Assembly: GCF_963855985.1 (NCBI RefSeq)
Contig: NC_087092.1
Span: 16,864,001-16,928,000, forward strand
Source of the DNA: Ostrinia nubilalis
Lineage: Eukaryota; Arthropoda; Insecta; Lepidoptera; Crambidae
Direction of reading: 5' to 3'
Length of the DNA stretch: 64,000 nt
The notes beneath the pieces are model-generated. The model ran no database searches, was not told the DNA's origin, and saw only the letters and a list, made by a program, of their open reading frames with translations. Made by a program: the position numbers and the translations under genes. This document shows, in pieces, positions 9,201-12,200 of this stretch; the first letter of the stretch is position 1; each line of letters begins with the position of its first letter.

Positions 9201-12200
9201 TAGCCCGACGGATTAGCAAGCTGAAGTGGCAACGGGCACGGCACATAGTACGCAGAACTGACGCCCGATGGGGCAGCAAGGTTCTGGAATGGAGGCCGCG
9301 TACCGGAAAATGCAGCTTGAGACATCCACCCACAAGGTGGACCGACGACATCATAAAGGTAGCAGAGAAGCGCTGGATGCAGGCGCTACCAATCGATCAA
9401 CATGGAAAGCATTGGGGGAGGCCTATGTTCAGCAGCGGACGGACGTCCTATGGCTGAAATGATGGTGATGAATGTCAAATTGCCGAGGATACGTCGCGCA
9501 GTTATCCCCCGACACAATACAGAAGCTCAGGTCGGGGGTCAACAGCGGGCCGGAAGCCTAAAAGATATAAACTTTGAGGAGAGAAAGAAGATATAATAAT
9601 AAAACTTAAATAGTTAAGGCCTGAGATTAACATCTCTACCGAAAGCATAAAAGAGCAAGCTCAAATCTTTGCATTGCGATAAAGAGTAACCGGAATGGGT
9701 TCTCCTGAAAATTACTTTTCGCATCCAGACTTTATATCCAAATATTTCCTTGAAATCTCATTTCCAATATCATAAGAGCTATCTGCTACCTGGTCGGTCT
9801 GTCTGGCAATATATCACCTTACTCAAGAAGAAAATGTCTAATTATACGTATAGTGCTGAACTGAATCAGTCCCTGAGAGCAATACCGAAGGGGTGACATT
9901 GACATATTATGACGTGACAGTGCATACAAATCTGCCCCCCTAGACAAAACGCACTTTTTGATCGAATCGAAAATCGAATCCGTCAAAACTCCATACAAAA
10001 AAGGGGCTTTTCGACCACTTTTCGACTGGTTTGCGATTATAATTTGCACTTTGTCTAGACCCACTGAAGGAGATCAAGTCTCGCTGACGTTAAACTGTCA
10101 CAAAAACACCCTCTCGTGCCGCTTCCATTCCTCAGACTCAGCTAAGCGTTGGATCTATAGAAGAGGATATTCATCAGTAAACCACTGGTTTCTATGTAAA
10201 CACCACCTATTTTAGTATAAAAATACCTAAAAGCTACTAACCCTTCAATGAGTTCCATCCTCATCGCAAAGCCGCTGGCAAAGTTGGGGTACACGAAGCC
10301 GCCTTCCTCCTCCAGATCCTCGTAGAACGTGAAGTGGTGGATGATGGTGGGCTCGTCGTCGCTCAGGGGGTAGCCTATCCACATGGTTTCCTGGAGAAGC
10401 ATATTATATGGTAACATCTGTATGGGGAGAACTTTCCAAGTGAGCATGGTGTGGCCAAATCTAAAACTGTCAAATAATTAAATGTCAGCTCTGGGCCGAT
10501 TACGTTTGTTACATCAACGAATACTAAAATTTTCTATTAGAAAAAACCCATGGTTTCAATGAAAATACGCAACCTGTATTATTTCTCTTCTAGAGTCTAG
10601 GCGGCCAGTGAAATGGCACTTTGATGAATTCTTCATTAAACTGATAGAGATTACTTCATGTGTGTTTTATATTTTCTGATTCAAAGAATTAGAGCCTTAA
10701 AACCCAGAAGTTGCCGTCTACTTACTATCAATTTGTTAATACTATGTATATTACTGATCAGAGACACACACTCTTCTTACCTTGTGCTGGTCTGCAGCTG
10801 GACTGTTAGCAGTTTCTAGAAGTAAACATGATGTGGTATAACAAAGAGCCTTACTTTGTGCTGGTCAGCAGCTGCCAGAGCTTCCAGCAGCTGGCTGCAC
10901 CTCACAGCAGTATGAGGCTCCACGAACAGCACTCATCGCACGTCACTGCCCTTGTAACGGGCTACTAAGGGCCGCAGCAGAGGGATGACGGTCCACGCGC
11001 CGGGCGAAGGGAAGTCTATGTGCGTGAGGTGGACTCTTGGCAGTTTCTAGAAGTTAACAAGCCTTACCTTGTGCCGGTCAGCAGCTACCAAAGCTTCCAG
11101 CAGCTGGCTGCACCTCACAGCAGTATGAGGCTCCACGAACAGCACCCATCGCACGTCGCTGCCCTTGTAACGGGCTACTAAGGGTCGCAGCAGCGGGATG
11201 ACGGTCCACGCGCCGGGCGAAGGGAAGTCTGTGTGCGTGAGGTGGACTCTTGGCAGTTTCTAGAAGTAAACGAGCCTTACTTTGTGCTGGTCTGCAGCAG
11301 CCAAAGCGTCCAGCAGCTGGCTGCACCTCACAGCAGTATGAGGCTCCACGAACAGCACCCATCGCACGTCGCTGCCCTTGTACCGGGCTACCAAGGGCCG
11401 CAGTAGCGGGATGACGGTCCACGCGCCGGGCGAAGGGAAGTCTGTGTGCGTGAGGTAGACTCTTGGCAGTCTCTAGAAGTAAACAAGCCTTACTTTGTGC
11501 TGGTCTGCAGCAGCCAAAGCTTCCAGCAGCTGGCTGCACCTCACAGCAGTATGAGGCTCCACGAACAGCACCCATCGCACGTCGCTGCCCTTGTACCGGG
11601 CTACCAAGGGCCGCAGTAGCGGGATGACGGTCCACGCGCCGGGCGAAGGGAAGTCTGTGTGCGTGAGGTGGACTATTGGCAGTCTCTAGAAGGATGTGGT
11701 ATAATGAAGAGCCTAAGAGCCTTACTTTGTGCTGATCAGCAGCTGCCAAAGCTTCCAGCAGCTGGCTGCACCTCACAGCGCTGTGCGGCTCCACGAACAG
11801 CACCCATCGGACGTCGCAGCGACGGGATGATGGTGCCACGAGTCGGGCAAAGGAAAGTCTATGTGCGTGAGGTGGACTCTTGGCAGTCTCTAGAAGAAAG
11901 CAGTACAAGAAAGAGCCTTACTTTGTGCTGATCAGCAGCTGCCAAAGCTTCCAGCAGCTGGCTGCACCTCACAGCAGTATGAGGCTCCACGAACAGTACC
12001 CATCGCACGTCGCTGCCCTTGTAACGGGCTACTAAGGGCCGCAGTAGCGGGATGACGGTCCACGCGCCGGGCGAAGGGAAGTCTATGTGCGTGAGGTGGA
12101 CTCTTGGCAGTATCTACAAGGAAACGTGATATGATAAAGAAAGGGTTTTGTCTTGCTTATTTTTATGCAAAATAGAGACATTGAAAATGCATAATTTATT

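What the first reader, a model, noticed from the sequence alone, without database searches (positions are those of the whole stretch)
10781..12113. Seven tandem copies of B3GLCT exon 4, four of them fully open
The sequence shows a 192-base phase 0-0 exon repeated with a 213-bp period. Copies A, C, D and E are open and differ mainly at their first residues (ILPRVHLTHID, RLPIVHLTHTD, RLPRVYLTHTD, KLPRVHLTHTD) and at their ends (AADQHK or AADRHK). Copy F has TGA for a Trp codon, B has lost 28 bases, G is a remnant. A symmetric exon array resembles the set-up of mutually exclusive exons (Dscam-like) in a gene that I do not know to have this. If used, it would vary the N-terminal domain of a TSR-glucosylating enzyme.
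Basis: partly seen in the sequence, partly recalled or inferred. Interest (0 to 1): 0.88.

Follow-up and report, generated by a model that had tools for sequence, protein, structure and literature searches.

The report
Self-multiplying exons in a moth gene
One exon of a corn-borer enzyme gene sits in seven side-by-side copies, four still readable; they are most likely the trace of a process that turns exon DNA into tandem arrays in this moth, rather than a menu of alternative exons.

Summary
The window is Ostrinia nubilalis (European corn borer), B3GLCT on the minus strand; no second locus was found. Exon 4 has seven tandem copies: A, C, D and E open, B and F broken, G a remnant.

The Dscam-like reading is only partly supported. 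Open copies differ at 3-5 of 64 residues. Spacers of 21-40 nt are too short to be introns, so adjacent copies should not be joined, but non-adjacent ones can be: NCBI's model of this gene carries A followed by C. No docking/selector pairing was found.

Exon 4 is not special. Exons 6, 10 and 11 of the same gene are also tandemly duplicated, each with one usable copy. Among exons 3-10, only exon 4 can be repeated without a frame shift. Protein models of Colias, Operophtera and Pararge B3GLCT carry exon repeats too; 0 of 101 named non-lepidopteran records scanned do. In the same genome, 3 of 21 UCH-family loci and one of 18 control stretches show exon arrays.

Best reading: a general tandem-duplication process makes exon arrays, and splicing decides which survive. 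A is the default copy, C the only plausible alternative, and A+C the likely extra isoform. No RNA evidence was available.

The parts
11922..12113 (-). exon 4 copy A, open, 192 nt; the copy with the natural upstream intron
   Evidence: used in NCBI model P0001
11726..11889 (-). exon 4 copy B, 164 nt, frameshifted
11494..11685 (-). exon 4 copy C, open; 40-nt upstream spacer with a branch-point-like motif
   Evidence: used after A in P0001
11281..11472 (-). exon 4 copy D, open; 21-nt upstream spacer
11068..11259 (-). exon 4 copy E, open; 21-nt upstream spacer
10855..11046 (-). exon 4 copy F, TGA at the Trp38 codon
10781..10815 (-). exon 4 copy G, 35-nt remnant next to the downstream intron
28991..29041 (-). 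B3GLCT exon 2, 51 nt (hydrophobic piece VGTLVLILAYINFVSSF)
12518..12627 (-). B3GLCT exon 3
10242..10390 (-). B3GLCT exon 5
9473..9557 (-). exon 6 remnant (e6c), no donor
8960..9143 (-). exon 6 duplicate (e6a), acceptor kept, donor lost
8438..8627 (-). exon 6 usable copy (e6b), both splice sites; the copy used in P0001
7740..7875 (-). B3GLCT exon 7
6706..6859 (-). B3GLCT exon 8 (DDD motif)
6102..6211 (-). B3GLCT exon 9
5375..5544 (-). B3GLCT exon 10, usable copy with its donor
4502..5374 (-). array of exon 10 3'-end + donor + intron start; further exon ends at 5258, 5141, 4998, 4817 followed by GT, and a degenerate one at 4535
3123..3275 (-). B3GLCT last exon 11a, ends RDEL stop
2556..2696 (-). 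exon 11 duplicate (11b), acceptor lost, 94% identical
14393..15454 (.). 145-bp x 7.3 intronic tandem array in the same gene

Best explanation
The exon-4 array is one product of a general tandem-duplication (minisatellite-like) process that repeatedly multiplies exon segments, often with their 5' splice site, in this moth genome; B3GLCT is hit at four exons. Splicing then decides which arrays survive. Duplicates of internal exons with unequal end phases (6 and 10 here) are tolerated only where the extra copies lost a splice site or lie outside the first usable donor or last usable acceptor. Exon 4 (192 nt, phase 0-0) can stay intact many times over. Spacers of 21-40 nt are below the minimal intron, so adjacent copies are not spliced together. 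Copy A, with the full upstream intron, is used by default. C, whose 40-nt spacer can hold a branch point, is the only likely second copy, either after A (A+C, 64 extra residues) or instead of A. D and E are probably silent or rarely used; B, F and G are dead. Shown: the anatomy, the duplications, one locus, the A+C annotation, the same architecture elsewhere. Inferred: the splicing outcomes and the survivorship rule.
For: Exons 4, 6, 10 and 11 duplicated in one gene; they are the four highest-GC exons of the nine measured (1 in 126 by chance, noticed afterwards). Each of 6, 10 and 11 has one copy with the needed splice sites (my reading). Exons 6 and 10 are phase-asymmetric, exon 4 symmetric. 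Spacers are 32, 40, 21, 21, 21 and 39 nt; fly minima are about 35 nt donor-to-branch point plus 15 nt branch point-to-acceptor (PMC5762160, passage). P0001 from residue 4 on is letter for letter exons 2, 3, A, C, 5, 6b, 7, 8, 9, 10 of the window plus VE. Among open copies only A and C have a YTNAY motif 15 nt or more from the exon. Exon repeats in other lepidopteran B3GLCT models: Colias P0125, Operophtera P0038, Pararge P0122; 5 of 43 named lepidopteran records versus 0 of 101 other named ones. Same genome: an exon-end + donor 81-bp array, 19 matches, one locus found, and exon arrays at 3 of 21 UCH loci, one with a 137-bp exon-end + donor unit x3.9. The spliced frame e3-e11a is intact.
Against: Differences between full-length copies are mostly synonymous per site (pS up to 0.16, pN up to 0.035); over the array P(N<=9 of 21) is 0.003-0.012, which could mean that several copies are used. 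Changes unique to single copies are only weakly constrained (P 0.05-0.11), and copying from a constrained master copy would look the same. Exon 2 (51 nt) is also symmetric (phase 1-1) and is not duplicated. Operophtera repeats exon 3, which here has the lowest GC (0.409), against a simple GC rule. The branch-point motif is a weak test: 5 of 8 unquestioned acceptors in this gene lack it. In the Fringe-family control a fringe-like gene shows no clear tandem exon set. The other species are seen only as predicted proteins, so their arrays could be model or assembly errors. No RNA was seen.
Confidence: 0.62

Rival explanations
1. True mutually exclusive exon cluster: one of A, C, D or E is chosen per transcript by steric exclusion plus regulation, tuning the N-terminal GT-like domain.
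For: Phase 0-0, equal length, intact splice sites, sub-minimal spacers, synonymous-biased divergence over the whole array; a Pararge fragment (P0122) also has two exon-4 copies, differing by 2 residues from the Pararge RefSeq copy.
Against: Copies differ at 3-5 of 64 residues, at positions that vary in the family (permutation p 0.014). No docking/selector pairing: no spacer clearly beats shuffles in either flanking intron. The annotated model joins two copies. Steric exclusion covers only clusters of two (PMC6071210, passage). D and E lack room for a branch point.
Confidence: 0.17
2. In-frame domain expansion: A and C (or A, C and E) are constitutively joined, making an enlarged N-terminal domain.
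For: NCBI model P0001 is exactly A+C. The A donor to C acceptor distance is 236 nt (coordinates), a workable intron. Exon 4 ends lie in loops around a beta-alpha module in the model of P0002 (residues 53-116).
Against: In the AlphaFold2 model of P0001 the first copy has pLDDT 54-71 and the second 86-97 by 10-residue blocks (the alignment itself may favour the second copy). P0001 also lacks exon 11, so it is not a clean transcript. No other full-length lepidopteran model among the 170 proteins scanned shows a repeated exon 4.
Confidence: 0.13
3. Poison-exon switch: inclusion of the stop- or frameshift-bearing copies F or B lowers expression by decay.
For: F carries a stop and B a frameshift while both keep splice sites.
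Against: Nothing shows that they are included; F sits behind a 21-nt spacer. Broken copies are also what neutral decay gives.
Confidence: 0.05
4. Assembly artefact.
For: None direct; reads were not available.
Against: Full-length copies are diverged (93-98% identical, with different spacers and a stop; B and G with deletions); the array is far shorter than HiFi reads.
Confidence: 0.03

Closest known systems
Tandem exon duplication / mutually exclusive exons (Dscam, tropomyosin type; the tropomyosin case is recalled)
   Same: Homologous exons side by side, equal length, symmetric phase; spacers too short for splicing between neighbours (PMC5740500, passage: 57 human clusters, 9%, with potential steric interference)
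   Different: Copies nearly identical, the one annotated model joins two of them, no docking site found, and other exons of the same gene are duplicated and decayed
Minisatellite expansions that modify gene structure (internal tandem repeats of human segmental-duplication genes, PMC2812944; outline only seen)
   Same: Tandem repeats that change gene structure
   Different: Here in a gene with one locus in an insect, at several exons at once, often anchored on exon ends plus donor, and seen in B3GLCT models of several moths and butterflies
B3GLCT (GT31, Fringe-like; solved structure 12em_A)
   Same: 453 aa from exon 3 to RDEL; DDD, PDDM and THSPLFHQ motifs present; best PDB hit E 2.4e-100
   Different: Only in the duplicated exons. 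Exon 4 encodes part of the N-GT-like domain, whose function is unknown in human B3GLCT (PMC8233153, passages)

Membership tests
B3GLCT | Fringe-like domain PF02434 and best relatives named beta-1,3-glucosyltransferase | tested here: met
   (P0001, P0003, P0005 and others so named); Loxostege relative P0002 scores 180 bits for PF02434; own exons hit by PF02434
B3GLCT | complete coding frame with C-terminal ER-retention-like end | tested here: met
   exon 3 to RDEL-stop open; exon 2 found, exon 1 not located
Mutually exclusive exon cluster | homologous, equal-length, phase-matched tandem exons with splice sites | tested here: met
   A, C, D, E
Mutually exclusive exon cluster | exactly one copy per transcript | tested here: inconclusive
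   no RNA; the one annotated model has two copies
Mutually exclusive exon cluster, Dscam type | docking site paired with a selector at each copy | tested here: not met
   12 spacer/intron pairs, at best 15% of 200 shuffles as strong; only the two flanking introns and the spacers were searched, with simple base shuffles
Mutually exclusive exons by steric hindrance | distance between neighbouring copies below the minimal intron | tested here: met
   21-40 nt; fly minimum about 50 nt in all
Tandem exon duplication | copies at one locus, tandem, same strand | tested here: met
Minisatellite-like exon array | many diverged head-to-tail copies of a unit of tens to some hundreds of bases (definition recalled) | tested here: met
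   exon 10 117 bp x3.0, exon 4 213 bp x6.0

The most novel reading that the evidence does not exclude
In Lepidoptera, exons, often their 3' ends together with the 5' splice site and often GC-rich, act as seeds of minisatellites. This genome-wide process keeps building tandem arrays of exons and donor sites, and splicing geometry (first donor, last acceptor, sub-minimal spacers, exon phase) filters them. It would be a continuing source of in-frame modules such as A+C in B3GLCT, hit again and again in the same gene in different families.
Probability: 0.35. Interest if true: 0.78.

Novelty: new variant of a known kind. Interest (0 to 1): 0.58.

Why it matters
It separates the making of exon arrays from their use. 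If arrays arise widely by a mutational process and only splicing geometry and exon phase decide which stay, then a row of open exons is not by itself evidence of regulated alternative splicing, and the raw material of mutually exclusive exons can be watched at an early stage. It also warns that automated models of moth and butterfly genes may join array copies, as P0001, P0038 and P0125 seem to do.

Tried and rejected
Docking/selector RNA pairing for the array: nothing clearly above shuffles. A second B3GLCT locus that would make this a dead copy: none found. A B3GLCT-only hot spot: weakened by the UCH and L015 arrays. The 117-bp repeats at 5094-5443 first looked like a retroelement fragment in translation (my reading); they are exon 10 ends read in another frame. 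Local clustering of strong tandem arrays (TRF score over 1000, period 100 or more: 4 in about 23 kb at this locus, none in the rest of the 264 kb scanned) is kept as a lead only, because the borders were drawn after seeing the data. A search for fragments of exons 3-5 gave 4 hits, two from Choristoneura and Pararge and two unnamed at 42% and 80% identity, so none that looks like Ostrinia. GC-rich arrays in controls L011 and L012, and the one in L024, were inspected in translation only and look like ordinary satellites. Self-BLAST of proteins for repeats printed nothing, even for known repeats, and was replaced by an offset scan. A rule that all array periods are multiples of three was considered and dropped: steps of 224, 204 and 231 in exon 4 and 143 and 181 in exon 10 are mixed. 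None of the listings I saw (B3GLCT with mutually exclusive; B3GLCT/Lepidoptera/B3galtl; exon duplication/minisatellite/Lepidoptera; exon array terms; others) showed this array in print, in an open-licence library only.

Full report
What is there. The window is part of a 495.4-Mb, 52-contig genome. NCBI's Ostrinia nubilalis protein P0001 is, from residue 4 on, letter for letter what the window's exons 2, 3, A, C, 5, 6b, 7, 8, 9 and 10 encode, plus two codons past the exon 10 donor. The size fits assembly ilOstNubi1.1 (495.50 Mb, HiFi 44x; PMC11851004, passages seen). The gene is B3GLCT: exons 3 to 11 with copy A give an open frame of 453 aa ending in RDEL, and exon 2 lies at 29041-28991; exon 1 was not located. 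All 21 protein matches found in the genome fall in this one locus.

The copies. A, C, D and E are open and differ pairwise at 3-5 of 64 residues (positions 1, 4, 6, 10, 55, 58, 62). These positions are more variable than average among 35 relatives (30 named Lepidoptera, 5 unnamed; mean entropy 1.76 against 1.03, permutation p 0.014). Synonymous differences outweigh nonsynonymous ones per site in nine of ten pairs of full-length copies; C vs D has 0 synonymous and 3 nonsynonymous. Summed over the array, 9 of 21 changes are nonsynonymous, fewer than neutral expectation (P 0.003-0.012 for kappa 1-4). For changes unique to one copy the figure is 7 of 14 (P 0.05-0.11). These change counts were read by hand from the columns. 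So the sequence was under constraint, but I cannot separate constraint on several copies from repeated copying of one constrained master.

Splicing geometry. Spacers from donor to next acceptor are 32, 40, 21, 21, 21 and 39 nt. In flies a branch point needs about 35 nt from the donor and 15 nt to the acceptor (PMC5762160, passage), and in human constructs donor-to-branch-point distances under 50 nt give profound splicing abnormalities (PMC11291888, abstract). Adjacent copies should therefore not be joined. Steric exclusion works only between neighbours, as PMC6071210 notes for clusters of two (passage). A to C is 236 nt, a workable intron, and P0001 reads exon 3, A, C, exon 5. That model ends just past the exon 10 donor and lacks exon 11, so I do not treat it as proof of a transcript. 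A YTNAY motif at least 15 nt from the exon lies in the intron or spacer before A and C; B and F have one only inside the preceding copy, D, E and G none. Five of eight unquestioned acceptors of the gene (exons 3, 5, 7, 9, 11a) lack it as well, so this is weak. No pairing between spacers and flanking introns clearly beats shuffles.

Not only exon 4. Exon 6 has two near-complete copies and a remnant with a 516-bp period. Exon 10 has an array of its 3' end plus donor plus intron start, with ends at 5375, 5258, 5141, 4998 and 4817, and a degenerate one at 4535. Exon 11 has a second copy without acceptor. In each of these, one copy has the needed splice sites. The four duplicated exons have GC 0.594, 0.611, 0.629 and 0.608; the five others of exons 3-11 have 0.409-0.581. 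Among exons 3-10, exon 4 is the only one with equal end phases; exon 2 (51 nt, phase 1-1) is symmetric too but not duplicated.

Other species. I scanned the 170 proteins listed by the three protein searches (one search listed 120 of 711) for internal repeats. Five have them, all Lepidoptera: O. nubilalis P0001 (exon 4 twice), O. furnacalis P0035 (exon 6 twice, not adjacent), Operophtera brumata P0038 (a 25-residue exon 3 unit at least eight times, a 37-residue exon 10 unit four times), Colias croceus P0125 (a 46-residue exon 10-end unit, ten exon ends), and a Pararge aegeria fragment P0122 (exon 4 twice, identical copies that differ by two residues from Pararge RefSeq P0007, which has one). 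By name, 5 of 43 lepidopteran records have repeats, 0 of 101 other named records and 0 of 26 unnamed ones (the sorting by name is mine). These are predicted proteins, so the arrays may partly be modelling errors. The Colias unit reads through the donor position (FHQ|V), as exon 10 would here. Operophtera repeats exon 3, the exon with the lowest GC here, which speaks against GC as the only cause.

Same genome, other genes. In 20 further 10-kb stretches (two beside the window, 18 elsewhere, positions picked by hand) one locus, L015, has an exon whose last bases plus GTAACG plus intron start repeat with an 81-bp period. The unit has 19 matches, found only there. That this is an exon is my reading of frame and splice signals; Pfam gave no family. 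A control search with the UCH family gave 54 matches, which I grouped by eye into 21 loci; 3 have tandem same-region exons (C22 six, C18 three, C43 two matches), seen in DNA too; a fourth (C17, two overlapping matches with stops) is unclear. In C22 two of the six copies have deletions. C43 is a 137-bp x3.9 array of exon end plus donor, GTGAGT in three of four units and GCGAGT in one. The control family Fringe gave a fringe-like gene with broadly collinear pieces and no clear tandem exon set. Exon arrays are therefore not peculiar to B3GLCT, though with four exons hit it is the most affected gene among those I looked at.

Structure. In the AlphaFold2 model of the single-copy relative P0002 exon 4 is residues 53-116, a beta-alpha module whose two ends lie in loops. 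In the A+C protein the first copy is poorly predicted and the second well; in the smaller alignment that I read, relatives matched the second copy, so this cannot decide. In human B3GLCT this is the N-GT-like domain of unknown function (PMC8233153, passages).

Conclusion. The array is real. It is best read as one outcome of a general tandem-duplication process filtered by splicing, with A as default and A+C as the most likely extra product. Which copies are used is open until RNA is examined.

Noticed in passing
L015 1-600 and L027 (G000:C4:4998941-5000463): 81-bp array, 19 matches, of a coding-exon end plus donor plus intron start in an unidentified gene; same architecture as the B3GLCT exon 10 array
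   Followed up: partly
L028 (G000:C22:6671900-6675800), L029 (C18:7326200-7328500), L030 (C43:10088100-10089000): Tandem copies of the catalytic-box exon in three UCH (ubiquitin protease) genes; gene names USP20/33-, USP34/9X/24- and USP35/38-like are recalled, not tested
   Followed up: partly
L008 2361-3187 (about 7 kb left of the window): 178-bp x 4.6 tandem array, the only other array with TRF score over 1000 in the 200 kb sampled outside the window
   Followed up: no
14393-15454: 145-bp x 7.3 intronic array in the same gene
   Followed up: no
46451-46721 and 51286-51556; 51694-51885 and 58017-58208; 51878-52036 and 63841-63999: Pairs of 100% identical repeats (271, 192 and 159 bp), perhaps parts of a young mobile element
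   Followed up: no
6904-7324 and 19547-19972: 96% identical 428-bp repeat with an internal 143-bp duplication, a dispersed element inside the gene
   Followed up: no
8632-9454: Retroelement-like open stretches (RPPIRWTDD-like, recalled as RTE type) between the exon 6 copies, possibly involved in that duplication
   Followed up: no
P0035 (O. furnacalis): The model places a second exon 6 after exon 7, so the sister species' locus is also rearranged or misassembled
   Followed up: partly
52636-52791: 28-bp x 5.5 minisatellite, 95% matches
   Followed up: no
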